Shown: positions 29,064 to 56,040 of the stretch, in pieces | Layout: each line of letters starts with the position of its first letter | How positions within the stretch are numbered: the stretch's first letter is position 1 | NCBI GenBank assembly: GCA_030280995.1 | Contig: JASXTE010000001.1 | Location: 3,098,001 to 3,162,000, forward strand | Direction: 5' to 3' | DNA: 64,000 nucleotides | Source: Hemileia vastatrix | Lineage: Eukaryota; Basidiomycota; Pucciniomycetes; Pucciniales; Zaghouaniaceae | The notes under the pieces: generated by a model | The model's input: the letters and a program-made list of their open reading frames with translations, nothing else | What the model was told of the DNA's origin: nothing | Database searches by the model: none | Position numbers and translations under genes: made by a program

Positions 29064-29104
29064 CACCACAGAAAAAATGGGGGGGTATTGCTAGCAATAC
29101 CCCT
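29064..29104. repeat. Left 41-bp TIR of the giant element
   Basis: CACCACAG, six A, T, seven G, then a palindrome centred on GCTAGC. It is identical to the inverse of 55885-55925. Confidence 0.95.
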
Positions 29105-29958
29105 CATTTAAAAATGTTGGGAAGTGGTTGGAAAGCTGTTGGAAGGCTGTTGGGAGTTCATTGTGAAACCAGATTTAAATTAATTGGACAAAGATTTGGT
29201 AATAAGTTAGACCTAGGTTCAACAGAAATCAATCACAGGTTTCTTGGAGCTTGGTGATTACTTTGATTTTGAGCTGAGCACAGATTGAGCAAAGCTTGAA
29301 CATATCACTTAACATATCATAATATTCACTTTCCCATCTTGTGGAAAGCAAAATTTGATATTCATTCTAAGAATATCTACATATATTTTCTTGCCAAGTT
29401 GGTAACAGAAGTTTAAACTGTAGTATCTCAATTATTACACTAGACTACATAGATATTTGATAAAACATACAATTCAAATCAATTTTAATATTATTGAGAT
29501 CACCATAAGTGTCTGTCCAAAGACTTACAAAAAGTATGTTAGTATCAAGACATCGTTCTAGGTAGTAGTTTCAATTTGGATTTTGAACTGACATCTAAAG
29601 CATTTTACTATTAGACAGAAACATAAATAAGTGTAATAAGAGTGAAATTATTCTATTTTGTGATTATAATGTAACAATAAAGCACATTTTTCTTGAGAAA
29701 ATTTTTCTTCTTCCACAAACCAAAATTTACTCTATAGGCTCAAGATTTATTTTTAAGCCATATTATTCATTTCAGTTATCATTGATTTACTTCCAATATT
29801 TATTAAAAAGATAATAATAATACATGTGAAAGAATTATGAGCTTAGCATAGCATATGCTAAAAAGTTATTTTGTCCTTTTATTCAAAACTGATTATTCAT
29901 TTTTTGCTTCAATTCATCTTTTAACAACCACTATCTTCAGATACTATTCTTACTTAAT
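29105..29958. other. AT-rich 5' non-coding part of the giant element
   Basis: No gene is supported. GTTGGAAAGCTGTTGGAAGGCTGTTGG near 29127-29153 is a short direct repeat close to the TIR. It probably contains the SNF2 promoter. Confidence 0.4.
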
Positions 29959-32387
29959 ATGTCAAGTCTCAGATGTGTTGGAAAGTTCTCAATAACGATT
30001 GATCAAATTTATATGAATGTAATTTCAAGATTTCAAAACTCACCAACCCCCACGATTTTACAGCGAGGCCATTTGAATGTTCATATTTTTGGACTATTCA
30101 AAGAAAGAAAACCAACCCTTGTCGGTAATCTTTCTCAAGTGCAGAGTCAGCACATTGGACCACTATTGGGTGACATTGGGTCTGGATCTCACCATTTAAA
30201 CCAAAGAAGTGCCTTGAATCCTATGAAGCCTTTCTATTTTCATGCTTACTTGTTTCCAGTTTTTGGTAATCAGTATCAACTTTGGGGATGCCTCTTTTCT
30301 TCAAGTACACTAATCAGTTTTGCTAAAGAAGCATTTTCTTCTTCTCAAATCGATTTATGTCCGATCCTGAACTACGACTCCACTATCTTTTTTAATATCC
30401 CGCATGTAATTTTTGAAGGCTCTTTCCAAATATCTCAGAGTACTCAAGATTGGAAAGCTGATCAACTTATCCGAGGAATCAAAACAGTTCTCAAAACACA
30501 TCAACTTCAAGCAATAAATTTTATGATTGACAATGAACAAATGTTAAAGGAAAAGTTGGATATCATGTGGAGGCACCAGGACAACCATTGGCTTAGAACT
30601 GGATTCGATGACTATAAAGATCAGTTTCCTAACAATCAATTAACCCCTGAAGGAAACAGGTCAATACTTGCTGATGATATGGGTTTGGGAAAGACGCTTT
30701 CAACTCTTTCTCTTATAAGTGCAACTCAAAGTGAAGCAAGACAATTCCAGGTATCGGAAAATCAAGAAGGTATTAATCGGAGTTCAGCCACACTGATTAT
30801 ATGACCCCTGGCAACACTATTGAATTGGATCAATGAAATAAGTGTGAACTTTGAAGATAATGCGCTTCCTTTCAAGGTTCTTTATGGGAAGGATTGTCAA
30901 AATACTAACGTCAATGAGCTACAGGACACTGCTATTGTTTTAATGACCTATGAAACAGCTAGCCCAACAATGTCAAAAAATCAAAGCCAAAAAAAGATAC
31001 CGGTGACTCAAAAGCTCTTTTGGTATAGAGTTGTTTTAGATGAAGCTCAGTTAGTGCCCATTTCTATATCTAAAACTTAAAACTTAATTTTTATAATCAA
31101 TTTTTATAAATATTCTTTTAGTTACATTAAAAATACTTACTCGCAGAGGGCTCAAACAATATTTGACTTGGAATCCCAACACCGACTATGCTTGACTGGA
31201 ACTCCACTTCAGAACAGGCCCACTGACCTTCAAAGTCTAATATTTTTTCTTAGAATCAAAAAGTGGCAAGAAGACTGGTTATGGAAGAATTTCCTTTTTC
31301 CAGGTTTGCAAAAAGGAAAGGCTAATTCTATTAAATCAATCAATCACTTAATGAAAGTCATAAGCCTACGTAGAACAAAGGATGCAATTTTGTCTCTTCC
31401 AAAAAAGATTCAAAGGGGGATATTGGTTCAATTAGCAGATCCATGGAGGTCTAAACTTGATGTGCTTCAAGAAGGATTCACTGAGCGATATGGGCCCTCC
31501 AGAAGCACTGACATCCCTTGGGACTCATCTGAGTTTCTAAGAGAGCTGATGATTTTAAGAAAATTCTGCAACCATCCAATCTACAAAAATCTGGATGAAA
31601 CTCCAACTTTTGATTTTACCTGGCAGAATTCCACAAAGATTTGTCATCTTATAGGCCACTTAAAAAACTTTTTTTCTGGTGAAAGGGGTATAAATTTTCC
31701 AAAAGCTGTTATATTCTCCAACTTTTCAGACTTTTTGCAGATGTAAGTGATTCTATAATGAATTGTTTTACAAAATTGTGTTGGCTTATTAAAAACAATT
31801 TTCTAATATTTCAAAATAGAATAAAAATGGCTTTAGATGACCACAATATTAGGTATACCCAGCTTACAGGTGAACTCAGCAGGATAAAGCAAGACAAAAA
31901 TATGCATGAATTCCATTTTAATAAAAATTGCCAAGTTTTGGTTGGAACGATTCAGGCTGCAGGAGTGGGTATAGATCTCAGGTGTGCTCAAAATGTATAT
32001 ATAATGGTGAGCTCAATGTATTTTATTTCATATTAAGAACAAAAATATTAAATTTTTTATATGTTCAATGTTGAAATAGGAGCCAAATTGGAATCCAGCA
32101 GTTGAGAAGCAGGCTGTTGATCAGCTGTATAGAATGGGGCAGCAAAATGAAGTAAATGTTTTGAATTATTTTGTACAAGGAAGTATAGAATTCAGCATGT
32201 ATAAGATTCAAAGGAAAAAAATGGAGCTAACAATGTAAGCCAAATTTCATTTCTATAAATTTTAATGATAATAGTAATCATTAAAATTATGTTTTTGTTT
32301 TCAAGGCTAAGTGTCCCAAACAGTGGAAATGAGGAGTATGAGTGTGCAAACCTATTATTAAGGGAGTTTGTCAATCACTCACATTAG
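29959..32387 (+). pseudogene. SNF2-family ATPase/helicase, five exons, one internal stop
   Basis: Exons are 29959-31049, 31122-31742, 31820-32006, 32080-32234 and 32306-32387, joined by 72-77-bp GT-AG introns. Motifs: I ADDMGLGKTLSTLSL; Ia LII-PLATLLNW; II DEAH, created only by splicing (GAT GAA GCT CA joined to T); III RLCLTGTPLQN; a block with LRRTKDAILSLPKK; V GTIQAAGVGIDL; VI KQAVDQLYRMGQ. No RING or HIRAN domain is visible, so it looks like the bare two-lobe core of the RAD16/HLTF side of the family. Such proteins use ATP to remodel nucleosomes or protein-DNA complexes. Oddities: TGA at 30802-30804, where relatives have Cys or another residue before PL, and Gln in motif VI where Arg is usual (QAxxR). 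Its 3' end overlaps the convergent gene by 17 bp. If the stop is a sequencing error, the rest is intact. Confidence 0.88.
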
Positions 32388-33491
32388 AGGAAGAAAGAAT
32401 TTCAAGGAGAGCAGGTAAATTTATGGGATTTCGAGGATTTAAAAGTCTGAGTTGTTGAGGATTTAGAGATGCAAGATATAAGGGAGAATAACAGTCATTT
32501 GGCAAACCCCAGGGGACATGAGAAGGATTAAGGTTAGGGGATAATGTTGAAACCAAACTGATTCTTTTGTACAAGGCTAAGTCCTTTAGCACACTTCCAG
32601 AGTAGGTTGAAGTATCTCGAATATCAAAGTGTTGTTGGTCAAGATATTGTGCAACTTTAGAAAAATCTTCAGACCTCCATTGCATTAAGATACGTCTTAA
32701 CGATCCATCATTATCAATTTTGGTGTCTGAACAACACTTGATGTTTGTGAAAAGGTTGTGATAAGTTTCGCAATGTGGAAGTTGTTTAAGAAGTTTAGTT
32801 TGGTTAACTGAATTCTAAGAATCTTTGTTATTTGAAATAAAGGTCATAAATAAAAACAGTTGAAAAAAAGGGGATTTTCATACTTTTTTTTTATTCTATA
32901 TTTATGCTTTCTCACTTTGATTATTTCTTGAGAGCTATGAGAATCCTTCCCAAGTCTTAATTTATCAGCATGACCTAAAAACCAACGGTGAAGAACTCCC
33001 ATTTGATTTGAGAAGCTTATTTGAGTTGAGTCAATTGGATATGCAATCAAATTATTGGTTTTTAAGGCATTGTCCCAGTGTTTAATGAGAATATTTGCCA
33101 AGACCTGGTTCCATTTGTCAAACCAATCTAGGTTCCAAGCGAAAGTTGATCCTGGGAAACCGCACATGCGAAGGTGCTCAATAAAAGATTCACGGAAAAT
33201 TGGTGGAAACTTTTCCGAAACCGCTGAATTTGATTCTGGATGAGGTAGTTCAAAGGCGATGTTGCAAGAATTCATGTCGAATGATGAAAATCTGTCTAAT
33301 TGCTCTTCAGTAGGGTTTTGTTTCCATCCATTTGATTCTGGTGACATATCCAAAAGTGAACGACGAAAATTGTGTATAGATCTACAAAAGTGAGAATTGA
33401 ATGGAGGCAAAGTCTCATTAAAAATTCTATTAAGTCTTCGTGTGTTTGTGGGCAGGTTTCCATGAGGAAAGTAATAGTTACTAGGGTTCAT
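32371..33491 (-). CDS. Conserved TE accessory protein of unknown function (copy 1), two exons
   Basis: Exon 1 (33491 to about 32890) starts MNPSNYYFPHGNLPTNTRRL and contains FAWNLDWFDKWNQVLANILIK, MGVLHRWFLGHADKLRLG and a basic KVRKHKYRIKK end before a GTATGA donor. Exon 2 (about 32825-32371) contains LMQWRSEDFSKVAQYLD and GLPNDCYSPLYLASL. The last motif is shared with the accessory gene at 38372-40030 (IPKICYSATFLQGL after GWRNSELNDLF). Proteins of this pattern are familiar next to basidiomycete transposases but I know no function. A role like the DNA-binding TnpA of CACTA elements is conceivable. The splice phases of the obvious donor and acceptor do not match, so either another site is used or there is a small indel. 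Confidence 0.6.
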
Positions 33492-34588
33492 AAAGAATTA
33501 GATTAAGAAAGTGTTCAATTAAATTAAAAAAAGAGGAAGGATAAATTGTTGAGCTCCAAAACTTTATGATCAAAGTTGATTTAAGGAGAAATATCACAAA
33601 AATTAAGAATAAGATATATTTCAACTTTATGGCATTATAATATGCATAAATTATATTTTTATATGCAATTTGAACTCAAAAGGAATGGTATAAAATGAAG
33701 AGAATGATTATGTGATAAAAGCAGACTCATTTGAGAAACGGATTTTTTTTTCTTTTCAAAAAATTCTTCCACAAAAATAATTTGATAAATGTGAGGCTAT
33801 GTTCATTTTTTGATTACCAAAAAATTATTTTTGGTCCAATATGATAGTAATACATATTCGATTGAGTAATTTTTGTTCAACCTGAATAAATAGACTAGAG
33901 TGTCACTTCATCACATTTATGTATGAAAATTTATACAAGGTTTCAGCTTTTTTGTAATGCTTTAAGGTTTACACTTTTGTAGCATCTATTATTTGAGTAT
34001 TTTTGATTTTTTCTTTATCGAAAATTCTACCTAGTACAGACCAATTTTCAAAGTGAAAGAAATATGTTTGTGATTGTTTTTTACAAAATATTAACCTTAT
34101 TTTTGGGTTTAACTTTGATTTTTGGGGTAATTTTTTAAATAATTATGTTAAAAATATGGATTACTTTTCTTATAGTCCATAACTAAGAATTTTTATCAAA
34201 ATCAAATAATTATAGGGTAGTTAGATATAACTCAGAAGGCATTTGATAGAAAAATAATAAAGATGCTTGTGCGTACAATAGAATTTTTTCTATGATAGAA
34301 AATATTCTGATAAACATGCATGCATTGTTGTACAAATGCAGAGAGTATACAGAATACAAATAAAGTAGACTGCATAACTTTTAATTAATATATAAATTAT
34401 CTGATTAAAAATTAAACATTTAAACTTAAATAATTTCAACACATATTCCATCATATTCTTTTGATAAAAAAATGTAGCTTATATTAGCTAGTGCCTTTCA
34501 AAAAAAGGAGTACCTTCAATCGGTAACTTCCAATAGCTAACTTATTCCTACAATTATCACAATTACAATTCCTCCATTTTTTCATGTA
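33492..34588. other. AT-rich spacer between divergent genes of the giant element
   Basis: It lies between the starts of the minus-strand accessory gene and the transposase, so both promoters should be here. No gene or strong repeat is seen. A transposase exon may begin near 34530, but no start codon is visible in the frame of its zinc motif. Confidence 0.4.
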
Positions 34589-37500
34589 TGTCAATGTCAA
34601 GATCTTGGATGTGTCAATAGAAAGTATCAAACTTCTTCTGAGTCCTTTGAAGTTGGTATGGCTTTCAAAAGATCTAGTTCTTACGCAAAACATCAAGAGG
34701 AAAGAAATAGGAAGGCCCAGATGGTAATTTCTTCCAACAATCCACTTAACATTGGAAGTTCCCGCTCCACAGAAACAGTAAGCTGTATATCTATAGTTCA
34801 ATGTGAGAATTAAAGTCTTTATGATGTTTCAATGATTTATTACATAGGGGCAGTTGCTATTGGGGGCAGAAGTATCTTCAACAGTCTCTAGAAACTCAAA
34901 TCTTGGGGAACGGTATAGCCAAATAATTATGTGGCAGGCAGCAAAGCTTTCTCTGATTCATCATTTGAGCAAAGAAGGTTGTACTCAATTTTTGGATGAA
35001 GAAATTAAGAAGCTCAAACTTCTAGGTGATAGTGGAATACTGGATTCTGATAGCATTGTCCGCCTGATCCCATGCTCGATAGATACAGTTTTTAGTCGAT
35101 TAAAGCTCAATCAATCATTTTTCACTAAAACATGCTGTCCTAAATGCTTTGCTCTTTATGAGTATAACTCTGAATCTCAACCATCTATACTATGTTGCAA
35201 TCAACCGTTTCTTTCATCATCAAAGCGCTATTTAAAAACTTTTGGAGCAGGACAAATTGCAGTTAAATGTGATGAAAGGCTGTATTTGATGGAGGAACAT
35301 CAAGAACATGTAAAATACTTATCTCTTAAAACATTTCATCACCATTCTTTTATCGACTGGCTTAAGGAAAAGATCAAACTGTTCAAATTTGAGCTTCTGA
35401 TTGAGAAGAAAACCCCTGTGGCAGAACATGTAGAGTGTGATTTGATGAAGGATGTTTGTGATGGTTCAATTTGGAAAAACTTTCCCATTACCACTCCAGC
35501 TCTGGATAGCAATGATGATGAATATACGTAAACTTCAGGCAACTTAATGTTTACTTTATATGTCGACTGGTTTAGGCCTGGTGGCAATAGGATTGGAGGT
35601 CATCAGAAGTCTGTAGGAAATATTATGATGGTGTGTATGAACCTACCTCAAGAAGATAGATACAAAATGGAAAATCTTTTTTTGTATGCTATTATACCTG
35701 GACCAACAGAACCCACAAGTGAACAGCTTAATCACCTTCTAAAACCACTTTTTAATGATCTACAAACTCTATGGGATGGTATATTGATTGAAAAGACGCA
35801 TCTTTATCCACGAGGCCAGAAAGTAAGAGTTGCATTGTTCTCTTTGATAGGTGACATTCCTGCAATACAAAAATTGGCTGGCTTTTCGAGTCACTCTGCA
35901 AAAATGTTCTGCTCTTTCTGTAATATCTCTAAAGATGAAATCAGTGAAAAGAATGTGGGAAATTTTTCATTACGGAATCATGAGGATCATATGTGCTGGG
36001 CAACAAAGTGGAAAAATTCTAAGTCACATTGGGAGCGTGTATCAATTGTTCAGAATCATGGGGTACAATGGAGTGAGCTGAATAACCTTGAATATTGGCG
36101 TCCAACTGAATATTGCTCAATTGATGTTATGCATTCACATATGCTTGGCAACCTAAAAGATCACAGTCTAAGCTATTTTCAAATCCAAAATGCAGCAAAA
36201 GATCTAGAAAGAAAGCTGGAAAAGGATAAAAATTGGCATGTAAGAGAAGAAGATGAAGATTTCTTTTCTGATACTTCACTGCACAAACATTTGAAAAAAC
36301 GTAGAAGTAGCTTAAGCACCACGAATAATGATGATGATGATACAGGGCACACAAGACAGCACAAGCGGCAAAGACGTACGAGTTCAAGACAGTCATCAAG
36401 TCATCATGGACTAGATAATGAAGGATTGGGAACAAATCGATCAAGAAGCCAGAGTAGGTCATCCAGCTCCAAATTTATTCCTCCATATAGCGATTTGGCC
36501 TCAGTACAGTCTCACAGCAGTGACAGTAGGAATTCATTGTATAACTTAAGGCAAAGGAGCATTAGCATATCACAGAGTGAAGGATCTCACTCATCAAATG
36601 AGACAGCTAGAGATGAAGAAAGTAAAAGGAAAGGTAAGGAGAAAGAAAATGAAGGTAGTAGTAATCCACGAATCACGGCAGAAGAGCTACAGGTTGTATG
36701 GAAGATGATTGATCAAGTAAGAAGACCTTCCTGGCTAACACGAGTTCCAAAATCAGTAGGATCTAAAAAGGCAGGATCCCTCAAGGCAGCAGAATGGCAC
36801 ATGCTGTATACTCTCTACTTCCCTTTGTCACTTATACCCCTTTGGTTTGAAAAATTTAAAGAATCTGAATCTTCAGCTTCCTCAGCTGAAAAACCAAGAG
36901 AATATTATCTTCTCAAGTCACTTGTAACATTATGCTCGATCACCAATTTTTTGACATTAAAAAACATACAGACTAATGAGCTTAAAGATCTAGATCAATT
37001 TCTGTTAGAGTATTGTGAGTGCCTGAAAGAGGGTTGGAAGAATATTAATGCAAAGCCAAATCTGCATATCACTCAACATTATCCTGAAATGATAAAGCGT
37101 CTTGGTCCACCATCAGGTACAGCTACTTGGTCTGGAGAGCAGGTGAATCATATATTATCTGAAATTCCAAACAATCACCATCCACGTATGTAATGTTTGT
37201 AAGCAATGATTTAAAAACTCAGCTGTGCTAATTTATTAATATTTACCACAGGAGAGATACCGCTAACAATGCTAAAACATTGGTATCGGAAGTCTAGGGT
37301 ATTAGATCTTGGTGAAGCTGAAGATAATGATCAATGTGAGACTAAAAAAATCCATATTGATCTCGATAAACAAAACAAATGGATCCATCTAAGTATGGAA
37401 TTATTTACTAAATGGGTAAGGGCACGAATGGGAAAATAAACTTCAAGACGGGCTTTGACACCATCGGAGAAAAGAGGGGATCGGGTAGTTGAAAATGTAG

Positions 37501-37945
37501 CAAGCATATTGATACATGGAAAGAGGTTTACTAGTTACCATCGACACATTGCTAATTCAACAATTGAATTCTACTATGGAAAAGATAGCCAGTTTGGGCA
37601 AATTGATTATCTTTTCAGGTCGAAGGAAGGGAATGATCAAATATATTTAATAGTAAGTCCTTTCAAAGAGCTCCGTCCAGAAGAAACATCAAAGGATCCC
37701 TATGAGCTTTTCCACAAGTGCATTGTCGGTTAGTAAGAGTAGCCAAAGCAACTCAAATTGTGATTAAGAAAGATGCAATAATTGGACATGCAGCTACTTT
37801 CGAGCACAAAAAAGGAATATTTGGAATCAAAGATGAGGTTGTCACTGCCATTGGACTGCAGACGGTAGTGAGTGAAAAAATTAATCAAATTTATTTTCTG
37901 TTGACAAACATCTTTGTGTTAATTTGGGATTCGGGAAATTTGTAG
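34589..37945 (+). pseudogene. Tnp2/CACTA-like transposase, broken by two stops and a shift
   Basis: The N-terminal zinc-like motif CQCQDLGC lies at 34589-34612, followed by SSSYAKHQEERNRKAQM. A 124-bp intron (34724-34847) leads to QLLLGAEVSSTVSRN, then SFFTKTCCPKCFALYEY. The catalytic core has LYVDWFRPGGNRIGG (Asp, 35565-35567), IIPGPTEPTSEQLNHLLKPL, ALFSLIGDIPAIQKLAGF, FCSFC, SIDVMHSHMLGNLKDH (Asp, 36123-36125) and TWSGEQVNHILSEIPNN (Glu, 37137-37139). An Arg/Ser/Asp-rich insert (36290-36660) lies between the second Asp and the Glu. An intron at 37186-37251 splits an Arg codon. Breaks: TAA at 35529-35531, TAA at 37437-37439, and a frameshift at about 37716-37720. This enzyme class cuts at CACTA-type ends. 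It is probably inactive unless the breaks are sequencing errors. Confidence 0.8.
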
Positions 37946-38371
37946 GATTGGTGATGTTTGTAAATGGTGAAAGAAATAGTTCAATGCCCAATTAAAAAAT
38001 GCAATGCATCCAACTTACCTTATCATAAATCAGTGAACAATTACTTTGGTTGCTTTTATTGCGAGAGAACCCATGCTTTCAATGAGTCATTTTTATCTTA
38101 AATGTAAGAATGAAAGAAAGAAAATCTTGATAATGAGAAATATGATAAAATTTTTACTTAATGAATGATCTTCTTGCTCATTCATCTACTATAAATAGTT
38201 TGACCTTTCAACTTTAGCTGATAGCTATATATTATTCACTTTATTTTTTGACAAGAGAACATACACGTTAACAAGACTATATACATAGTATCTTTCTTTA
38301 CTTTAGCTTTGATAGGTATAAATTTTAACAACTGATTATTTTTATTTTATTTTATTTTATTACAGTTCATT
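37946..38371. other. Short AT-rich spacer
   Basis: It separates the transposase end from the next gene. A (TTTTA)n run at 38340-38360 lies just before a TTACAG directly upstream of the next start codon. Confidence 0.4.
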
Positions 38372-40030
38372 ATGGATGATAATTTTGAAGGGATGTCTGT
38401 TGACCCAACTGATTCTGATTTTTTTCCACCTCAACATACTAATACTGGAAATACTCCACCACCACCCGCTGCTGATCCACCTCCAGATGCATCTCAATCT
38501 GTACCGCCTAATCCTAACCCACCACCTAATCCCAATCCAGGCCAAGAGTCTCATTCAGAACCAAGAAACTTTAATCCAAATCATCCTTCTGCTCCTGAAA
38601 GTGCTGATCAGCAAGCTGATCAGCTAGGAAGAGATTGGGCTAGTGAAGTATTGAGGGAATTTTTCGGAGACCAATCATCATCTGCTCAGCCTAACCAAGA
38701 AGCAAGCACAAGTGGAGCTGGTAAGTCAAATTTGTAGTGTATTATTTTATTGAAAAATAACCAATTTAATTAACTTATTTGAATTGTTAGTGAATCCCTC
38801 AATAATTATGGGTATCAGTGATTACCAGACTCAATTCAGCAGAGTCTCATGAACAAGAACAGGGGTTAAGGGCTGTAAGAGGCTTAGTTAGAAGTAATGA
38901 TGTTCCCAGGAGCTCGGACAGTCTAAATAGAAATATTTACCACTTTCTGAAGTATTGTCTTGGGAGACCAACACAAATATCAAAATATCCTGCGAGCCCA
39001 ACACCTTTGGAGATTGAAAATTGGAAAGCTTGGAGCCAATTCAAACTGTCCTAACCCAAGTCAAATCTTCTAACCGTGCCAATTCTGCAGCTGATCGACA
39101 ATTTCTGATAACCAATTCTATAGCCTTCTTGCAATCCAAAATTTGACTACCTGAATTTTTTCCAGCACCTGAGCCTCGAGGTCTAAAAGGAGGAGCACCG
39201 ATCCCACTTTCTGTCAAAAAAACTTAGAGCGTGAATTGCAAGAAAAAGGTTTTCGGAAATTCGCCTTTGATTAGACTTGCCGTGATTTTTCGGAATCAAC
39301 TTGGAATCAAGTCATGGGAAGCATAGTATGCGACCACTGTACCAGGTGGCTCACCACCTTGAATACAATCGATCAGTCAAAGCTTCAGTTCACTCAATGT
39401 GTTATGGAGAAATGGGTAGTTAATAAGGGGAAGGAGATGATAAGGTTGTTTGGGCAAGAAGAGGAAAGGGTAGCAAGAGAAAAGATTGAAAAGAGGGCAA
39501 GGGCACAAGTAAAACGTTATCGGACCAAGGTAAGTTTTTTATTTTACTTTGATTTTTGTTATTATGAAGCTGATTTAGTTGGAATTCAGATTGCTAGTGC
39601 ACGCTACAAGTTAGCAAGAGATCTCTGCAGTGATGTGCCAGGTTTTGTTGTGCTTTTTCATGATACTAGGTGCATCTCTGATATTGAGGAAGGCCCAGCA
39701 ACAGCCCCAACTGCACCTATCCGAGCTATTCCTGGATGGCGAAATTCTGAACTCAATGATTTGTTTAAAAAAATGGATAAGATGACAAAGGACTTAGGCC
39801 ATACACCAGCTCAAAGAAAATCAGCATTAAAAACATATTCACGGTCATCAGAAAGGACAGTTGCACAAAATGGTATATTCAATGTTCCCAAATACATCCC
39901 CAAGATTTGCTATTCAGCAACATTTTTGCAAGGATTATCTGTGAATGAACGTGAGTCACTTGGGGTTGGAGCTGATATTGATCTGGTAAAGATTCGGGAA
40001 TCAATTAATAGAGCATCAACATCATCATAA
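38372..40030 (+). pseudogene. TE accessory protein (copy 2), broken
   Basis: It starts MDDNFEGMSVDPTDSDFFPP, followed by a Pro/Asn-rich linker (PPPPAADPPPD). Intron 1 is 38721-38790, after which the frame shifts by one base before TRLNSAESHEQEQGLRAVRG and YPASPTPLEIENWKAW. The stretch 39055-39313 is frame-broken but still reads NRANSAADRQFLITNSIAFL. The last part starts near 39314 (CDHCTRWLTTL) and has an intron at 39530-39589. It ends with RAIPGWRNSELNDLFKKMD and IPKICYSATFLQGLSVNE, the same signature as the minus-strand gene at 32371-33491. This is the usual position of a CACTA accessory ORF. Function unknown; DNA binding to the palindrome array just downstream is a testable idea. Confidence 0.6.
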
Positions 40031-40249
40031 CTTAGGTATAACGGTGATCTTCTGTGTAATATAGCTATCTTATATTGAATTTTATGTATTCTGTTTTTTT
40101 TTTTCAAAGCAGCTTGGTAAATGTTATAAAGTGATATTGAGAGAGAGTAACATTTTATTTAAGAAAAACAAATAATGTATGAGATATAAAAATGTATTTT
40201 CAACAAATTGATGGTCCATACCTCTTTATGTCACATTTATGTATCCATA

Positions 40250-42184: not shown

Positions 42185-43219
42185 TCAGGATCCATGAAGT
42201 TTATCAATAGTGTATGAGTTAAGTTTCAAGTCATATGTTTCATCATTTTCTTGCACCCATTTCTAGGTTATCTCAACAATTTTTTTCAAGTTTTATTATA
42301 TTAATCAAAACTGTGGTAAGTTGTGAAAAATTAGCTAATCCAAATCTCAAATCAAATATTATTATTTTAATAATTTTGAATGTTGCTTAAGGTATTTCAT
42401 TGGGTGATTCATAGTAATATTTTATCAACTTAGTAGTCCTATAACTTTTGAAAAGTAACAATATTGGTATAGTTAGGGACAACAATGCAATATCTTGTGC
42501 AGACTAAGATATATTGTAAAATAAAACTATTCAATTTTTTTTTCCCCTTAGTTGTATCCAAGTTTATCAATGGTTTGGTCACGGTTCCCACACCCTAGCC
42601 TGACACTCCTCCTGTCACTTAAAAAACAAATTCTTATCTTAAATTTTAATGTTACCAATTTTATATTTATAATTCATTTCTTGTTTGATGAGGCATATCA
42701 GTATATATGTGAATCTCGCATTGTCATCTGAAAGTAAATTTAACAAATATTCATAAAGGAATATCCTTTTTTTTCATATAATATACTAATTAAGTGTATC
42801 TCCACTGTTTAGGAGTAAATTCTAATTTAAAAAATTTTGTATTTACCCGTGGCAATTTGCATATGGGATATACATTTGTTATTATTTGTTTTTCACACTA
42901 AAAGTCCCCAAAGAATTACTAGTATTTTCTGTTAGCTACATCAAATTTCGCTTCAATGTAAACAGATTGTGATTTAGCATGTTACTCAGTTTACCCCACT
43001 ATGAATAATACATGTTAAAAAAAGCTCAAATAATATAAAATCCCCCTCTTTATGTTTTCTGTTTCTTTCATCCTCACTTTAATTTTAATCTTATTCAATT
43101 TTTTATCCTATTAAATTATCAACTTCAATTTTCTAGAATAGAGTTTCTTATAATTATTCATCATATTACATCATAATTTTTTGATATCGAATACTTTTTT
43201 TTAATATTCATTAATCAAT
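42185..43219. other. AT-rich spacer after the palindrome array
   Basis: No gene is supported. A slightly GC-richer island, GGTCACGGTTCCCACACCC, lies at about 42577-42595. Confidence 0.4.
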
Positions 43220-45647: not shown

Positions 45648-46445
45648 TATTCCAACATTTAAGTAGATAAAGTTCTGTCTATATGATTTATCTTGTATAA
45701 TTCAAGTTATTTTCCTTCAAATACATCAAAAATGTGACCATCTTTGAAATTTATTAAGTAACCTTTGACATGATTTTCTAAATTAATTATTAAAAAAAAT
45801 TATTGTAAGTCCAGCAATAACAAAGATTTTAAAATCTACTTATATGATTTCAAATACTTGTATTAAATTCTTAAATATTTTATTGTTTATATAAAAATAT
45901 GATAACTGCTCTAGTTTTGTTGCTTTACCTTTAATATTATATAATCTATTAATTATTACAAATATTTTTGTTGAGTGTAACATTTTTAATCAGAAGTAGA
46001 ACAATTTAAATAATTAAATGAGTACATTCTTAAAAAAATACAATTTAATCTATTATTTATTCAAAATTCTTTCATCAACTCTTTATTATTAACTTTTTTA
46101 TTAATAAGCCTGTTTGACCTAAAATACTATACAGTTAATTTGGTAGCATTAAAAGCACATTTTTATGGCTAATATATTTCAAATTCTTTATTATAGTTTT
46201 TTTATTTTAGAACCTTTTCTACCAATTTAATAAAAATGACATTAAAAGATTTCACAACTTATATATTTCCTCAAAAGGAAAGCAAATTTTCTTATAATAT
46301 TATGAAAAAAAATTATTTTATTTCACAAATAAAAAAAATAGATAATACTATAATTATCAAAACTGAAAATGTTACAGCTACTCCCAGTATTTATCATGTT
46401 TAGTTTTGCATTAAGTTGTGTATATATAATATAAATTTTTAATAT
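45648..46445. other. AT-rich spacer between convergent genes
   Basis: This is the 3' side of both neighbours. No gene or repeat is recognised. Confidence 0.4.
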
Positions 46446-47640
46446 TTAAATATCTTGATTTTTTAGATTTGTCTTAACATTAGATAAATAATACTTTGCT
46501 GAATTTATTTCTTCCTCTATTAAGTCATCTCTTTTCAAAAAAACTCTCAAAGCACTAATCAAATATTTATACCTATCTTTTTCTTCTTTAATTTCCAAGT
46601 ACTCTGAAATATCAATATCAAAAACATTAAGCTTTTCTATAGCATGAAAAAGTCTAGTGCTGATTTGAATAGAAGAACCTATCCTAGTGAAGCCAGGAAT
46701 TTCGTGACATCTTGAGGTAAAATGCCTTAGTTGATTGGCAGGCCATAATTTTACTGTTATTCCATTAGTTGCTTCAAAGTTGATTTTACTTCGAATTTCG
46801 GGAAACATAAGTTCTCCACCTGTTTGTTGTGGTTGGGTCTTATCATACTTCATATGAATGATATTGTTTTCTGTATCTTTAGGAAAAAATATTCCTAAAG
46901 TATACTCACTTGCATCCTTATCGAGATGAACCTCATTGGAGAACCCATTACCATTCGCTCCAGATGTCCAAGTTAAATTACTAGCAAATGGTACACCCTC
47001 TTCTTCACTAGAAACTTTTGAAAATCCAGGAATACCAAGTTTTGCACAAAGATTAGTTTCCTTGTTGTACTTTACATATGATATTTTTTTAAAAAAATAT
47101 TCAAAGTACATTGCAATCCTCTTCATTCGTTTTTTATATTCATCCGTTTGTACAATATCATCAGTGTATTCATCTGCAAGGAAAAGCATTCAAAAATTCA
47201 GTATTTAAATTAAAAAAGTGATACTTACGAATATATAAAGATTTCTTCCTATCTAAAATAAAGCCACCACGAAACATTTTTCCAAAACCACAAGCTCTTC
47301 AATGATAACCATTATTTTTAATTTCATGTTCGCAGTAAGAAAGATCCTTAATGCATTGCACCGTAGCTTCTAACATATCTAGTTCTTTGAGCTCATGAAT
47401 TTCAAAAGTCTGCACAAGAACATTAGGTATTAAGACACCTTTTGGTTTATAAATACTACATCCAGGAAAAAAATTGTAATAATTATTGCAATCTGTCATA
47501 TTATTTGCATAAGATCATGCATAGAAATGTGGCTTCTTCCCATTTGTATCCATTCCAAGAGCGTTTACAAGTTTCATTCCAGTAGCAATGTCTTTGGCAC
47601 ACCTATTGTTAGAGTTCTTCCCTGGCCGTTTTTTTTTTCA
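46446..47640 (-). pseudogene. TET/JBP-like 2OG-Fe(II) dioxygenase in the giant element
   Basis: The upstream exon (to 47229) reads RCAKDIATGMKLVNALGMD, then CNNYYNFFPGC and RACGFGKMFRGGFILDRKKS. A 55-bp intron (47174-47228) splits a His codon. The main exon has FASNLTWTSGANGNGFSNEV, HLDKD (iron-binding HxD), YTLGIFFP, GGELMFPEI, LRHFTSRCHEI (candidate distal iron His) and RIGSSIQISTRL (Arg that would hold 2-oxoglutarate). This motif order is that of TET/JBP oxygenases, which oxidise 5-methylcytosine or thymine; the catalytic residues are all present. Breaks: TGA at 47299-47301 and 47515-47517, both plausible former TGG codons, and a probable shift at A10 near 47628. The catalytic exon itself is unbroken. 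The start is not identified. Confidence 0.72.
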
Positions 47641-49398
47641 AATTGTTACTCATTGATGGTTCAATCCTAAGAGAATTCAATTTTGATTTAAAATAGAAAA
47701 AAATCAAAAATTAGAAAATAGTAACATAATTTCAATTATCAGTCAATGATACCTTTAACTTTATCATATCTTCAATATTAGAAATACAAAAGTTAGCATA
47801 TCTACATATTAGTAAATTTATATACTTTTTCTTTATTTCAAATATTAAGAAAGTGTTTCAAAGGTATACTTTATTAAATTATACATATAAAGAGTATAGC
47901 TTTATCCTGTATGCATTCAGCAAGTACGAGATTTGGCTCTGCACTTAATATTAATAATATAATGAAAGTATAACTCCAATACACTAGTAATATTAAAAAA
48001 TTTACAGAATTATCATATCCACATATATAAAATGAAAAATCTTGCTCTGACAAATATATTGACTTAGAAAGTTATACTTCAATAAATTATTAATTTTTAA
48101 ATTGTAGCATTGTCCTGTATGCTTTCAGCAAGTACGAGACTTTGAAACAACTTAAAAATCAATAAATTAAAGGTAAAGTACAAACAATCTAATTATTATT
48201 ATGAAAAGCAAAACATTATCTTGTATGCTTTCAGCAAGTATGAGATGATGTTTTACTCTTCATATTAATAATATAATGGTTGAGAAAGTATTAAAGAAAT
48301 ATAGAAAAATGATAAGCAAAACATGAACTTACATGTCTATAAAAACTTCTTGCATTTGTAGCTGATTGATTAAAATTAATTATAAAGTTTATTTTATAAT
48401 CACTGTTTTAAAAAATAAATGGTTAGATAAATAAATTGAACATTTTTGATAAGGAATAAATAAAAGTAAATTGACAAACAAATAAAAAAACTTTAAGTTA
48501 ACTGAAAAAGAATTTTTTTTAATGAATCAAAAGGGTACAGTAAAAGATACCATAAAAATAAATTCAGAATTATAATCATTAGATTAACTTGTCAAAAGTG
48601 TAAAAAAGAGTAACAAACCAAAATGATATGAAATGCAATAGCAAGAAAAATTTGCTTACCGGTAATCAGATAAGGTCAAGAAAATAGTACCAATAACTCA
48701 AAATGATAAAGTAAAAATATGATGGATAATTTTAGAAAAAGGTAAGTGAGAAAGAGAAAGGAAAAAGAAATTGGGTGGCAAACAGATGTAGATATCATGA
48801 ATTTTCACTGATCTCATTTTCAAAAAAATGCAGCTCTCCAAGTCATATGATAAACTTCATCTAAATTCCAATAATGATGTTTCCAAGGCACTGTACACAG
48901 CATGAACATTTTATCCTATGCATATACTAATTTCAGCTAGAATTTACTTGGCTTCATGTTGTACAGATGAACATTTGTGGAACACTGAATTTCACATCTA
49001 AAAAAAATTGATGCCACATAATTCTAGCTACCATGTTTCACGTAGCTAAAAAACATACACTCATCACATTTAAATTTACATTGCGTCAAAATTAATTCAT
49101 TTTTGAATTTTTTTAAAGGGAACTATAATGTGCACCACCTATTTCTAAAATATGAACCTCCCCACCATATTAAATTGGGAGACTTATAATTATGCAATTT
49201 TTTTGCCGTGACCTTTTTCCTGATCTTACTTGGTTCAAAATATTGAAACATGACCAATGTTGCTGAAAGAAACATTTGATTTTGTTTCTATGTGTAACAA
49301 TGGAAGGCTGTTTCTTACCGGCTGAAGAGTGTTGTATATTTTATTTGAACACATTTTTATTTTTTTATGTATTTTATTTAAAAAATTTACTTTTTATT
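47641..49398. other. AT-rich 5' region of the TET/JBP gene
   Basis: No gene is supported. It holds three copies of a 28-bp box listed separately. Confidence 0.4.
47904..48244 (+). repeat. Three 28-bp boxes upstream of the TET/JBP gene
   Basis: CTGTATGCTTTCAGCAAGTA and close variants, preceded by ATC or GTC and followed by CGAGA or TGAGA, occur at 47904, 48112 and 48217. Spacings are 208 and 105 bp, or two and one times about 104. The rest of the sequence between them is not similar, so the boxes look selected rather than left over from a tandem repeat. Confidence 0.7.
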
Positions 49399-50051
49399 GC
49401 AGCCAGATTTATACTGGCTGCTTTTTAGAAACCTTAATTTATGACCCAAGCCTTTGAAATTGGCTTGGGTCCCTTACATTGCAATTTAGTACTTCCAGCC
49501 AGGTTTCCCTGGCTGGAAGTGTCTCTTTCTAGCAATCAAAGTCACTAAAAGCGACTTTGATTGCTTGCTGTAACGTTTGCCACCCTCCCAGCTAATTTAC
49601 TAGGCTGGGAGGTGGCCAAAATTGTGTGCAACGCGCGTTGCTGCTGCAAGTAACGCGCATTGCACAATTGCTTCCATATCTCATGCAGCTGATATCAAGT
49701 CAGCTGCATGAGATATGGGCAGCACATGAAATGCGCACTGCATGCAGCAGAAATGCGCGTTGCATGCAGTGCATTGCACAGCCAGTTTTTTTCTGGCTGT
49801 GCAATGCACACAGAGAAACCAAAGTCCCTGCAAGGGACTTTGGTCTCTAAAATGGAAGCGACTTTCCCTACCAGGTGCAATATGGTGGGAAAGTGAGAGA
49901 TAAGTTAGACTGAAGTTGTTTGAAAGCAACTTCAGTCTTAAAAACCTTAAAAATCATAAAAAAAAATTAAAAAAAATTAAAATGTGAGTATAAGAAAAAA
50001 AATAAGTGCTAGTGATACCAAAAACCCAAGCCGATTTCATTTGGCTTGGTT
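49399..50051. repeat. Array of 13 consecutive hairpins with unrelated stems
   Basis: Stem pairs (left arm/right arm): 49399-49406/49414-49421; 49443-49452/49462-49471; 49491-49502/49509-49520; 49531-49543/49553-49565; 49579-49592/49604-49616; 49620-49639/49652-49669; 49674-49692/49700-49718; 49735-49746/49761-49772; 49770-49785/49793-49808; 49818-49829/49833-49844; 49861-49873/49883-49894; 49907-49918/49927-49938; 50023-50032/50043-50051. Stems are 8-19 bp and most are perfect; loops are 3-14 nt. Most stem sequences differ, but CAGCCAG/CTGGCTG occurs in three and CCAAGCC/GGCTTGG in two. The block is far richer in GC than the DNA around it. No coding frame is credible. Confidence 0.93.
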
Positions 50052-53000
50052 ATTTAATAATTATTTTTTAATACATTAAATTTAAAATTCAAACACCATA
50101 AAATATATGAAATTTTTTTATATGAATATTATAAATTTAATCTACCTCTTTCTCATAATTATATTTATAATTTTTTTTTTTAATTTTTGACATTTAAGTT
50201 TATTTTTTGGAAATACAAAATTAAATTTTCAACTAAATTTTTAGTAAGGTAAAATAAATTATAAATTTGACATTTTGTAATTCAATAATGAAAAAAAATT
50301 TAAATTTATTTAAAAATATTTTTGTTAGAAGAATACCAATATTTTAAGGGTAGAAATTTGTTTCAAATTGTAAGTAAAAAAAATTATATTTTTTTTTGTG
50401 AGGGGTTATTTTTATTTTTAAAAATATTTTTCAAAAACATTCATTAAATACTGAATTAAATTACTTTTTAACTCAAATTTTTTGTAAAATAATTAAAAAT
50501 GAAATAATAATTTTGTTATATTTGATATAAAATTTGAATTGGTAATATCAATGTCTCTTTAAGTAAATTTGAAAATCATTTAAAAAGATTATGTTGATAA
50601 GTACTTCATTTTTGATATACAATGGTTATATATATATATTATATATATTTCTTGAGTGTTATTTTTATATACATTCAATAAAATTTGTAATATACAATGC
50701 CATTTAATCATTAATTATTGTTCAACTTAGTTATAAAAACTTCATATTTAATACCAGCCACTAGTATTTACTTTTTAATTTAAAACTCCAATATAATATG
50801 AGAGTATCCTTATTTTGTCTGTATGTAATTAACAACAATAACAGACCATAAATGAGTGGGTAATTAATTACAATAAATAGTTGAAGAATAACCTATAAGA
50901 AATGATAAGTTTATCAAAAAGATTACATTAAAAAAATATACTTTTGAATTTTTTTTGATATAATATGGGTAGTTAAATGAAAATTTAAATTATCAGACAT
51001 CAAAATGGAAAAAATCTAAAAGTGGTGTTTATATAATAAGCCTCATATAAAAAAAGGATAAAAAATCTACTATGTAACTAAATTATTAAATATTAAGGTA
51101 TTATTAAAATTATTGAAAAACTTATTTTACAGTTATAATGAAATCTAAATGTGAAAATTATGGTGGGATAATAGTAAGACTATGTGGAAACACTTTAATT
51201 TATACATACTTTCAACTATGTTCAGATAAAAAAATTGGTAAAATTGTATAATAACATCTAGTTAATAGCGATGCAATTTTATATAGATCAAGAATAATTT
51301 TTTCTGAGGAAAAACTAATTAAATTGAGATATGGCCATCTCCTTTCAAGAGATAGAATAATAATAAAAATTTAAAAAATTATAATAATAATTCTTAATCA
51401 CCATTTTTGAAAAGTCTCTAGTAATATTCATTATAATATATCATTCATTTATTACATTATATGGAGTTTCATCTTGAAGTAGTGATGTGCAGCTTTGAAC
51501 TCATGTTATGAAAAACAAAAAAGTTAAAAAATATATAGTTATACTAATGAAAAAGCCAAAAATAAAAATACTATTATAAATTAATAAAATAAAATTACAT
51601 AAATTTTATTCTGCTCTACTGATGGAAGGGTACTATGTATGAATTTCCACATGTTAAATCTAAACCTGTTTTAAGGCTAGTTTACAGGTAGAGCTATTAA
51701 GTTTCCTTAAATTCTAAAAATAACTTATGCATTTTAAAAATTATTTTTTTCTTGTTTTCTTTCCAAAGTTGTTAGAGTTGCTTAATTAATACTGTTATCT
51801 TAATTGTAAGATATATAATTTTTTTGAATACATGATTTATTGTTTCGAAAATTATATTATAAAGTTAAATCATTTATTTCATTTTCTAAAGCTTCATTGT
51901 CAAAGACACAACTCCATTTTCTATTACTTAACAAATATATAAAATGTGATAGTAAAATTTTAGGAATTTTCTTTTTGAGAGGGTCAAAATATATTGTCAA
52001 GATTTTTATCTAGAAATTCTTGTACTCTAAAACCAAATAATTTTCTCCCTTAAGTAAGCCATTTCAAAAATATGAGAATATAAACAAGAATATTGACTTA
52101 TCTTATTTTTATTTTCTTTACTGAAATTTTTAGTTCAATCCCTTTTTTTATATGACATTAGTATAAAACCATGGTTAAATGCTACTATATTATTAATTTA
52201 TATTATATATATATATATATGAAATATTTAGAAGGTCATCATTTTTTATTTACTTGAATAAATGGCTCAATTATAATACCCAACACTTATTAATGTTTCC
52301 CAAACTCAATAACAAATTTCTCATATGAAATATTAGCTTCTAATATAAGAAGTTTATCTATAGATGATATTAAATATGTGATTTTACTTTTTAGATTCAG
52401 CTAAAATTAAACAAAAGGAGAAATCATGCATATGTGTATAAATGGTAACCATATGTTACTTAGAGGATTGTGAAATTCACTCATCAGAATGGTTTAAGTA
52501 TTAAAATAAATTGAGGTCATTATTTTCTAGTATTTGAAACTAATTAGGAAATTATTCTAAAAATATATTTTAATGTGTATCATGTTTAAAAAGTTGGAAA
52601 TATGATTTTTGAAAATTGTGAGTTTCTTATGAGATTCCAAGCTTTAGTTTACATTGTTTCAAGTAGAATAGAATTTTAGTATTAGAAATTGAAAGCAATG
52701 TACCATTATCAGATTTTAACTGTGTTCTACTTATAGAATGATTACATAAAATTAAACAATATTTAAACCAAAAAGGTTTAAAAGATATTTAGAATTTTAC
52801 AAAATTTCACCATTTATTAATCTTTGATTTGAAAACCAACTATGATGTACACTCACTAGAAATAAGCAATCCCAATTTTAACATAATTTATCAATCCAAA
52901 AATAATGAGTCAATTAACATAAAAATATATATTATTTCAAAACCAAATCTCTAGATTTAAAATATGATGCTTTAATGAAAAATTAATACAAAGCTTTAAT

Positions 53001-53935
53001 GCAATGAACTCTCTTAAAAAATTCAAAAATAGAATATCAAAACAAGTGATTTCTTCAAAAAAAAAAACTACTAACTATTGTAGATAAAGCATAAAAATAA
53101 GTCATATTTTTTAAAAAAATGATCTAAAAATATTTATTTTTGTTAAAAAAATCAAAACATTGTTAAGTTTGCTTGTTATAATAATGTTAAAATCCACTAA
53201 ACATTATCTAAAGGTGGTAAAATATGTTAAAAATATGTTGAATTTTGTGAGCCAAAAATCAACAATTTTGTATCATTTCATGTTGTTCTATGACTTTATT
53301 CCACCCTTTTTATCTGATTCTTCCAGTATTACTTTGCTATGATCACTAGTTTTCAAGTTAAAATTTACAAATGTTCATTATACTTGATAATATGAAAAAT
53401 AACTCAAACTTTTATACCTACAAAATAAGATTTTGTAACTCCTTCTTTCAATCAATATTTGAAGAAATTTTTAGTTTATTTGGGTAATGATTTTAAGAAT
53501 AACAAAAAATTTGAAATTCACAAGGACTTATTTCCATGGACTATAATTATTTACTTGTGTAATTCATGAGCTACTTATCAATGATGTAAAACATCAGAAA
53601 AGTAATTTATAGTTATAAATCTACAAATTATACTGTGTCTGGTATATATATCTTCAATAAATCTTTTAAACTTATCTTAACCTACATACCACACAATAGA
53701 AAATCATTATATTAAAAAAGGAAAAAATTCTATGATAATATCATAAAGAATGATAACCATGGATTGATATTCCATAAAAATGATTAATAAAATTTTAAGA
53801 TAACCTAAATCAGTATTCTTTCATCAAAATATATCCTTTTTGTCTTTGTAATTTATTCCAAACAAATTTTTTGAAAGTTGAATCTATATATCTAATGCCA
53901 AAACCACTATTAAGTTCCCTCTTAGACTTTTTAAG

Positions 53936-53983
<48 letters not shown>

Positions 53984-55884
53984 TATTATTTATCAAAAAT
54001 TGAAATAAAGAATAAAAACATAATTTTATTTACCTTTAATTATTTAAATATAGAGTATTTTCAGAATGCATTGTGGTTACTTGTGAAGGTTAGAAGATTT
54101 GAAGTTGGAGTTATGAGTTTTTAGAAGGGCAAATATTGTAAAATTCTTTCATAAATATTTATTTCATAGTTTCAAATGTTGAAATCTACAAACTAATGGG
54201 ATTTAAAATTATATTGAGATTTAAAATCTGTTTTCTACTCAAGTAAAATAATATAAAATGATGATATCAAAATTGAAATTAAGTTTAAACTTTTGATATG
54301 CTCTATGTTCAATTTTATTGATAGTGCATCAAAAATTTAATAATATTTTTTTCCTTCATCACTTTTTACATAAAAGATAGTTTTATCATTTTATGCATTA
54401 AAGATTGCTTATATAAAGTTAACATCTATGTCAACTGTTTATGACTATTAATCTATATAATAAATTTTTTAGAAGAAACATCAGTATATACTGACTTTGA
54501 AATTATTTAATTTAAAATAGTTTACAGGTAGATAATGAAGGGTGATTTCATTTTTGAATATGAATTATAGAAGTCTTATTTTGTCAATTTTAATTCTTTT
54601 TGAGCTCAAATGTATCCACCACAACTTATGTAAGAATAAAAATTATTTTTATTGAAATTTACATGAGAAAGTATGCCTATTATTCAAAATCAAACTTGCT
54701 CTAATGGTGTTTTTCAATCATTATTTCCATTCATAACAATAAAAAACATTTCAATTTGCTGATGTTTTAGTATTTGATATCCCTAAGTTTATATCTCAGG
54801 TGTACTATTCACAAAATTATTAAAAATATAATTTTTGAAATACATGATATACTTGAAAGTGAGGGGGCATTAAATTTTTAAAAATGAATTCTAAATTCAG
54901 GATGGATAGTATTTTTTCTATTTTCACAAATGAACAATTTTTTGTTTCAATTAATCCAGAAAGAAAATTTTGTTGTAAGAATATTATATTATATTTATTT
55001 TGATTTTAAATACTATATTTTCAAGATTTGTGTTTAATATTTCCTGTGAAAGTTAATGTTAATGTGAATTTTAAGTAAGCTTGAAGAAATTTAATCAATA
55101 GGCATATTTGATATTTAAAATAATATTTTGCTCCAATCTTGAATCATCCTGGGCTAAAAAATATCCCAAATAAGGTTTTTGTGGGTCAATTTGGATTTAA
55201 GTAGGACTAAGTGAGGTTTAATAAAGGACAGATAAAAGGCTAAATTCATTACTAGTGACTTTTTTCTCAAAATAGTTATAAAATATGTATCATTCTGGAA
55301 TCAAGCTTCAATAAAGTTGAATTGAAACAGAGATAATTTCTAGCAGCACATCACCATATTTACAAAGGTGTAAAATACCTCAAATATTACTCATAATATA
55401 GGAAGGCAAGGAATCTAAAAAATTCACATTTGAAACGAGGATTTATATTTTGAATTTGAAATTGAGAAATGGAATATTATTTTCCAATTTAAATATCTAT
55501 TAGTCATTTTACCAAAAGTTTTCAGTAATCAGATTGAATTTTGATGGTATTTTGTTGTAGATTAATCATTTTGATGAGCCATTTACTCAAAATTACTGGT
55601 TTTGGTTCTAATATTCCATGTGAAATTCATTACAAATCTTTTTGAAAGTGAATAGTTGACATATTGGATATGCAAAAGCTTATGTTAGATCAAAGTGAGA
55701 TCAAAGGGAGTTCAACTCATGATCAAATTAGGATTTTTCAAGATCAAACGGTGATCAATGTAGGTTCATCTTGAGCTCAATTTGTGACAAATCTCTGACC
55801 AAATGTAAGGCCAAAAAGTTTCCTACATGGTGATGATGTGTGCATAATTTAGGCATAGATTTGTGGCTCAACGGAGTTCAAGCA
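50052..55884. other. About 5.8 kb of very AT-rich non-coding DNA
   Basis: I see no gene: open frames are short and low-complexity. (AT)n tracts occur near 50630-50650, 52200-52220 and 53941-53979. Near the right TIR, several GATCAAA words recur at about 55690-55765. The composition differs clearly from the element's coding half and could reflect decay, mutational bias or a nested insert from another source. Confidence 0.5.
53941..53979. repeat. (AT)n microsatellite
   Basis: About 39 bp of uninterrupted AT dinucleotides. Confidence 0.95.
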
Positions 55885-55925
55885 AGGGGTATTGCTAGCA
55901 ATACCCCCCCATTTTTTCTGTGGTG
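55885..55925. repeat. Right 41-bp TIR of the giant element
   Basis: Exact reverse complement of the left TIR, ending CTGTGGTG and followed by ATT (55926-55928). Inside the TIR the two sequences diverge at once (TCATTT against TGCTTG). Confidence 0.95.
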
Positions 55926-56040
55926 ATTAAGACCCATTGGTACACCCTTAAATTGGCAATTCATTGATAATTGTCAGTAATATTACTGGACACTACAGCT
56001 TGTGAGTCATTAACTTGACCTCTCACCTGCCAAAATATTT
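55926..56040 (+). repeat. Right ATT duplication and right half of the target repeat
   Basis: ATT (55926-55928) followed by AAGACCCATTGGTACACCC to GACCTCTCACC, matching 21032-21135 in the uninterrupted copy. Confidence 0.88.

What the first reader, a model, noticed from the sequence alone, without database searches (positions are those of the whole stretch)
29064..55925. A 26.9-kb TIR transposon with base-pair-exact boundaries and eight or more internal modules
Two perfect 41-bp inverted repeats, 26.86 kb apart, are flanked by ATT and ATT. Removing the element rebuilds a repeat whose intact paralogue sits 8 kb upstream. Inside are a transposase, a SNF2 ATPase, two related accessory genes, a TET/JBP-like oxygenase, an unknown gene and two structured DNA arrays. 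CACTA-class TIRs and target size are seen directly; that this is one mobile unit follows from the boundaries. I know of no described fungal element with this full set.
Basis: partly seen in the sequence, partly recalled or inferred. Interest (0 to 1): 0.97.

Follow-up and report, generated by a model that had tools for sequence, protein, structure and literature searches.

The report
Decayed 27-kb rust-fungus transposon with demethylase-like gene
A 26.9-kb DNA transposon with exact ends, likely from a rust fungus, carries the genes for its own movement next to a TET-like DNA oxygenase and an SNF2 chromatin ATPase that would probably help it escape DNA-methylation silencing, but stop codons interrupt several of its genes, so this copy is likely dead.

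Summary
The boundaries hold. Two identical 41-bp inverted repeats (29064-29104, 55885-55925) are flanked by ATT, and with the element taken out the flanks align without gaps to a paralogue at 20966-21147. Between them lie an SNF2 ATPase, two related accessory genes, a tnp2-type transposase, a TET-like oxygenase (PF20515), a gene without detected homologues, 19 copies of a 22-bp palindrome and a tight array of 11 hairpins. CAC...GTG ends, a 3-bp target duplication and a tnp2 transposase with D, D, C(2)C, H(3)H and E match the TET-bearing EnSpm/CACTA transposons published from rust fungi (PMC12730594), so the kind is known. Nine paper searches did not show the SNF2 gene, accessory pair, arrays or this size described for it. 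The SNF2 gene groups with Puccinia proteins. Likely mechanism: cut-and-paste by the DDE transposase, with TET and SNF2 countering CpG methylation (inferred). Other copies could not be sought: the genome search did not complete 16 times.

The parts
29061..29063 (.). left copy of the 3-bp target site duplication (ATT)
29064..29104 (+). left terminal inverted repeat, 41 bp, begins CACCA, holds a 22-bp perfect palindrome
29959..32387 (+). SNF2-family ATPase gene; ATG at 29959 matches residue 1 of three Puccinia relatives; in-frame stop at 30802-30804; four GT-AG introns in the part after it
32371..33493 (-). accessory gene 1 (two reading frames, 32847-33491 and 32371-32814)
34848..37733 (+). tnp2-type DDE transposase gene; in-frame stops at 35529-35531 and 37437-37439, probable intron about 37186-37251, frame change after 37733
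38370..40030 (+). accessory gene 2, related to accessory gene 1 and to the C-terminal part of Phakopsora transposase gene models; all three frames hold stops in about 38800-39270
40249..42185 (.). array 1: 19 copies of a 22-bp palindrome (ATTAATTTCGATCGAAATTAAT, up to 5 substitutions)
43220..45650 (+). unknown gene with several probable introns; one unresolved frame change between 43689 and 44063; last exon placed by eye
46446..47189 (-). TET/JBP-like 2OG-Fe(II) oxygenase, open frame of 247 aa with HxD and a later H (PF20515)
47227..47631 (-). probable upstream exon of the TET gene (splice phase fits; no Pfam match), with in-frame stops at 47515-47517 and 47299-47301
47860..48248 (.). three copies of a 75-bp direct repeat upstream of the TET gene
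49399..50049 (.). array 2: 11 consecutive G+C-richer hairpins, arms 8-19 bp, loops 3-12 nt
50050..55590 (.). A+T-rich, nearly CpG-free spacer
55885..55925 (-). right terminal inverted repeat, 41 bp
55926..55928 (.). right copy of the target site duplication (ATT)
20966..21147 (+). paralogue of the insertion site without the element (outside the element)

Best explanation
A 26,862-bp DNA transposon with 41-bp identical inverted repeats and a duplicated ATT, which encodes a tnp2-type transposase, a TET-like oxygenase and an SNF2 ATPase, is a large member of the EnSpm/CACTA group, likely of a rust fungus, and likely moved by cut-and-paste while its TET and SNF2 proteins would have countered methylation silencing. 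Shown here: ends, target duplication, empty-site paralogue, transposase family and motifs, the TET and SNF2 domains, and the interruptions in several genes. Inferred: the DDE transposase, perhaps with the two related accessory proteins bound to repeats inside the element, cut both ends and joined them to a 3-bp staggered target. The TET-like enzyme would oxidise 5-methylcytosine on the element's DNA, and the SNF2 ATPase would open or move nucleosomes so that transposase and oxygenase reach it. This copy then decayed by point mutations and frame changes and is probably no longer autonomous.
For: TIRs, TSD and empty-site paralogue. Transposase PF02992 at E 9e-13, 14 relatives among 5631 candidates, 4 of them named Puccinia striiformis and 3 Phakopsora. 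D12, D108, C127 and C130 of the ORF are invariant or nearly so in 10 relatives; H512/H516 and E536 are shared by the 7 of 10 relatives that reach there. TET-like domain PF20515 at E 3e-21. SNF2 groups with 13 Puccinia proteins, 97/94 and 100/100 support. The published rust EnSpm elements with TET have the same ends and duplication length. Accessory genes 1 and 2 are related, and accessory 2 matches the part behind the transposase in three Phakopsora gene models. The left flank at 16-28 kb is almost CpG-free, as expected where CpG methylation mutates old repeats, and the element keeps more CpG.
Against: No second copy was seen: the genome search did not complete. Several genes are interrupted, so no function can be claimed for this copy. 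The TET enzyme matches only profile positions 67-208 of 211, and no solved TET structure was matched by sequence. No catalytic test of TET or SNF2 of this group is known to me. The SNF2 could have another role (repair, replication) or be a passenger. The A+T-rich right 6 kb differs from the rest in CpG and could have another history.
Confidence: 0.72

Rival explanations
1. A short EnSpm element holds these TIRs, and parts of the interior (TET gene, unknown gene, arrays or the A+T-rich spacer) came in later as nested insertions or captured DNA with no role in its movement.
For: The spacer 50-56 kb has CpG observed/expected 0.08 against about 0.3-0.4 for most of 30-50 kb. Array 1 is confined to 2 kb and is itself an inverted-repeat structure.
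Against: A scan for exact 11-bp arms with target duplications of 4 bases or more gave 55 pairs; 53 lie within array 1, and the other 2 look like chance. No part of the element matches the flanks at E 1e-4. TET inside EnSpm is published for rusts.
Confidence: 0.2
2. The SNF2 gene is a passenger of the element with no part in silencing escape: it may serve replication or repair, as its nearest solved relative is the repair ATPase Rad5.
For: Best match among solved structures is yeast RAD5 (E 4e-40).
Against: It lies within the TIRs, is the first gene, belongs to a group with many copies in Puccinia triticina (16 of the 120 listed hits), and has no RING domain that would mark Rad5/HLTF among the Pfam hits of the relatives scanned (3 relatives).
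Confidence: 0.3
3. Assembly artefact: two TIRs joined by a misassembly in repeat-rich DNA.
For: The surroundings are repeat-rich, and no reads were available.
Against: An exact 3-bp duplication together with a gap-free empty-site paralogue is not expected from a random join.
Confidence: 0.04

Closest known systems
TET-bearing EnSpm families of rust fungi (Kojima 2025, PMC12730594)
   Same: CAC..GTG ends, 3-bp target duplication, transposase similar to both tnp2 and Plavaka models in Puccinia striiformis relatives, TET/JBP gene inside the TIRs, rust relatives
   Different: The main text read here does not mention SNF2, a pair of related accessory genes, palindrome or hairpin arrays, or a length near 27 kb; supplementary tables were not available
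Enlarged En/Spm (CACTA) families of the red alga Chondrus crispus, 16-20 kb with 4-5 ORFs (as cited in PMC6431247)
   Same: oversized multi-gene EnSpm elements
   Different: other host, smaller; the passage seen does not name a TET or SNF2 gene
KDZ transposons (Kyakuja, Dileera, Zisupton) with TET/JBP genes
   Same: TET/JBP gene carried by a fungal DNA transposon
   Different: 7-8 bp target duplications and another transposase; here 3 bp and PF02992
Starship giant transposons (recalled; listed)
   Same: very large fungal DNA element with several genes
   Different: Starships use a tyrosine-recombinase captain; here a DDE tnp2 transposase with TIRs, and no captain domain among the 17 element ORFs scanned

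Membership tests
EnSpm/CACTA (CMCT clade) | 5'-CAC..GTG-3' termini with TIRs | tested here: met
   CACCA...TGGTG, 41 of 41 bases
EnSpm/CACTA (CMCT clade) | 3-bp target site duplication | tested here: met
   ATT on both sides, single triplet in the paralogue
EnSpm/CACTA (CMCT clade) | tnp2-type transposase with D, D, C(2)C, H(3-4)H and E | tested here: met
   PF02992; VDWF, GDIPA, CSFC, HITQH, WSGEQVN in one ORF, conserved in relatives. Assigning the last E is my reading of the published motif
EnSpm/CACTA (CMCT clade) | placement in a transposase phylogeny | not tested
   no reference set of EnSpm, Plavaka and KDZ transposases was built; membership rests on Pfam, motifs and ends
TET-bearing rust EnSpm (Kojima 2025) | TET/JBP gene inside the TIRs | tested here: met
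   PF20515 at 46446-47189
TET-bearing rust EnSpm (Kojima 2025) | TET of the PU type | not tested
TET-bearing rust EnSpm (Kojima 2025) | family of several copies in one genome | not testable with these tools
   The genome search did not complete in 16 tries (last)
Plavaka | Plavaka model PF18759 and 5'-CATCA..TGATG or TGT..ACA ends | tested here: not met
   no PF18759 hit for the window ORF at E 1 and ends CACCA..TGGTG; two P. striiformis relatives do touch PF18759
KDZ | 7-8 bp target duplication and KDZ transposase | tested here: not met
   3-bp duplication, PF02992 transposase
Starship | tyrosine-recombinase captain at one end | tested here: not met
   none among Pfam hits of 17 of the 22 element ORFs of 90 aa or more; the other 5 ORFs were not scanned

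The most novel reading that the evidence does not exclude
A giant CACTA transposon that carries a whole counter-silencing kit: a DNA oxygenase to strip methyl marks, its own SNF2 remodeller to open chromatin, a duplicated accessory protein, a 19-palindrome landing array for such proteins, and a hairpin array whose fold, not its sequence, is what is kept.
Probability: 0.3. Interest if true: 0.75.

Novelty: new variant of a known kind. Interest (0 to 1): 0.5.

Why it matters
[quoted passage not shown] An element that carries both an eraser-like oxygenase and a chromatin remodeller within exact ends would make the question of how transposons beat methylation directly testable: find intact copies, ask whether TET and SNF2 always travel together, and look for oxidised cytosines and open chromatin over them. 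The hairpin array is a separate oddity with no match in Rfam.

Tried and rejected
KDZ membership was rejected on target length and transposase family. Starship was rejected for lack of a captain among the ORFs scanned. A tRNA or known RNA family in the arrays: no match. Exact TIR core in viral contigs and TIR start in prokaryote genome contigs: 0 matches each, and the transposase found no relative in viral contigs; these collections hold few fungi, so this says little. Relatives of the unknown protein: none at E 0.001 among 4981 candidates for a 420-aa query that covers its later exons only. Two structure predictions were of low confidence (TET alone, mean pLDDT 34.6; transposase with 11 rows, 40.7), so no fold search was made. 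No solved TET structure was found by sequence (best E 0.14, unrelated). A shared subterminal binding motif: GATCAAA occurs 23 times in the window, 4 of them in the last 430 bases of the element and 9 in 41.0-42.0 kb, but the left end lacks such a cluster, so it stays a lead. Covariation between hairpins: hairpins 4 and 9 share 12 of 16 pairs with 2 two-sided changes and 2 one-sided or broken; since hairpins were picked for being complementary, and template switching can keep palindromes perfect without selection, I do not claim selection. NCBIfam gave no hit for 7 element ORFs.
Full report
What was checked. The two ends are exact inverted copies over 41 bases, ATT stands outside both, and the element spans 26,862 bases. 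Joining the flanks in a script gives a sequence that aligns to 20966-21147 with 154 of 182 identities and no gap at the junction. The paralogue holds one triplet, ATC, where the element is flanked by two ATT, so one substitution separates them. This is the strongest evidence that both ends arrived together.

The transposase. The ORF 35532-37193 matches tnp2, PF02992, at E 9e-13. A search of about 5.8 billion proteins gave 14 relatives among 5631 candidates; the named ones are 4 from Puccinia striiformis and 3 from Phakopsora pachyrhizi, the other 7 are unnamed. With 10 of these 14 aligned, the residues expected of the CMC clade are visible: D in VDWF, D in GDIPA, CSFC, HITQH, and E in WSGEQVN. 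The first four residues are invariant or nearly so; the last two motifs are shared by the 7 of 10 relatives that reach that far. The frame upstream, 34848-35531, belongs to the same protein, because relatives align through it, and an in-frame stop at 35529-35531 separates the two. Downstream, relatives continue past a probable intron and a second stop at 37437-37439.

The SNF2 gene. It starts at 29959, which matches residue 1 of three Puccinia proteins (P0015, P0019, P0021), and runs to 32387. An in-frame stop lies at 30802-30804. The part after it, spliced at four GT-AG introns, reads through SNF2 and helicase C domains to a natural end. Of 1158 proteins at E 1e-20 or better the best 120 were listed; 23 of these carry Puccinia names (16 triticina, 6 graminis, 1 striiformis), the best at 49% identity. 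In a tree of 31 rows (the window, 13 of those 23 Puccinia proteins and 17 of the other 97 listed) the window gene lies with the Puccinia set, 97/94 and 100/100 support. The nearest solved structure by sequence is yeast RAD5. So the gene is one of a multi-copy rust group. That this group rides on transposons in general was not tested.

The accessory genes. The minus-strand frames at 32371-33493 and the plus-strand region 38370-40030 encode related proteins: 25% identity over 132 aligned positions, E 1e-5 in a four-protein database, with the first halves also matching weakly (E 0.001). Accessory 2 also matches the part that follows the transposase in three Phakopsora gene models (E 1e-10 to 6e-25), so transposase and accessory have likely stood together for long. 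Accessory 2 is broken here: all three frames hold stops in about 38800-39270.

The TET-like gene. The minus-strand frame 46446-47189, 247 aa, matches PF20515 at E 3e-21 over profile positions 67-208 of 211. It has HLD and a later H, as expected for iron binding (motif from PMC12730594). A probable upstream exon, 47227-47631, joins in phase but holds two in-frame stops, and its pieces match no Pfam family. Without it the N-terminal third of the family profile is missing.

The unknown gene and the arrays. At 43220-45650 lies a gene with several probable introns and one unresolved frame change; a 420-aa query from its later exons found no relative at E 0.001. Array 1 holds 19 copies of a 22-bp palindrome with up to 5 substitutions, all within 40249-42185 and none elsewhere in the window. 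Array 2, 49399-50049, is a run of 11 hairpins with arms of 8-19 bp. Other 681-nt tiles of the window hold a median of 0 such hairpins; the best that do not overlap the array hold 4 and 3. Folded as RNA, the stretch reaches -337.7 kcal/mol against a mean of -177.8 for 20 shuffles, z -23, and the lowest unrelated tile reaches -253.9. Six pairs of hairpin arms share a 7-mer, against 0.32 on average in 1000 shuffles, none of which reached 6. So the hairpins are related to each other through short cores. Whether the fold is kept by selection or by template switching is open.

CpG as a clock. The left flank at 16-28 kb has CpG observed/expected 0.00-0.08, the element 0.30-0.42 in 2-kb tiles at 30-50 kb, its spacer at 50-56 kb 0.08, and the far right flank 0.65-0.79. 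In finer segments the element varies from 0.06 (the left 0.8 kb) to 0.5. In Austropuccinia psidii old transposons lose CpG through methylation (PMC12774611, passages). By analogy the element is younger than the DNA to its left and has itself decayed, which fits the stops. The same numbers do not show that TET protected it, since coding segments keep more CpG than the spacers at both ends in any case.

What is known. Kojima (PMC12730594; abstract, the text from the introduction through the start of section 4.2, the figure legends and section 4.2 seen; supplements not seen) describes TET-bearing transposons of many superfamilies. Among them are three EnSpm families from P. striiformis with CAC..GTG ends, 3-bp duplications and Plavaka-like transposases, and he proposes escape from methylation. 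Two P. striiformis relatives of the present transposase hit both the tnp2 and the Plavaka models, so this is very probably the same group. The word SNF2 does not occur in that paper's main text. A review passage cites 16-20 kb En/Spm elements with 4-5 ORFs in a red alga (PMC6431247). Nine paper searches showed no TET plus SNF2 transposon, but most subscription papers, among them Iyer and others 2014, are not held.

How it likely works. Shown: the ends, the duplication, the transposase family and the domains. Inferred: cut-and-paste movement by the DDE transposase; accessory proteins as DNA-binding partners, perhaps on array 1; oxidation of 5-methylcytosine by the TET-like enzyme; help from the SNF2 ATPase in opening silenced chromatin. 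The link to silencing rests on what TET and SNF2 families do elsewhere, not on any test here. The copy itself is likely dead.

Limits. The host species was not identified; a rust is likely because the named relatives of transposase and the closest named relatives of SNF2 are rust proteins. The genome search was unanswered in 16 tries, so copy number, second copies and empty sites elsewhere are unknown. The nested-insertion scan used exact 11-bp arms and listed only duplications of 4 bases or more, so small or diverged nested elements could be missed. Pfam was run on 17 of the 22 element ORFs of 90 aa or more.

Noticed in passing
window 130-1052 and 18576-19567: Matching inverted repeat blocks (76-84% alike) at symmetrical places, which suggests another large element or inverted duplication of about 19 kb.
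   Followed up: no
window 4530-4996 and 12736-13205: Inverted repeats of 111 and 328 bp, 79-83% alike, about 8 kb apart: a probable element with long terminal inverted repeats.
   Followed up: no
window 16001-28000 versus 58001-64000: CpG observed/expected is 0.00-0.08 on the left of the element and 0.65-0.79 on the far right, as if DNA of very different age or methylation history lay side by side.
   Followed up: partly
window 62008-63036 and 26277-26942: Retrotransposon remnants: an integrase core (PF00665) and a weak gag pre-integrase match.
   Followed up: no
window 60385-60580: A single large hairpin, 86-bp arms 93% complementary with 24 nt between.
   Followed up: no
window 40249-42185: Of the 18 spacings between the 19 palindromes, 6 are 84-88 bp and 9 are 101-104 bp, often in turn, so two steps come to about 188 bp, near a nucleosome repeat.
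   Followed up: partly
window 47860-48248: The 75-bp repeats upstream of TET read on the minus strand as short similar peptide stretches (LVLAESIQDN-like) in more than one copy, so they may be duplicated small exons.
   Followed up: partly
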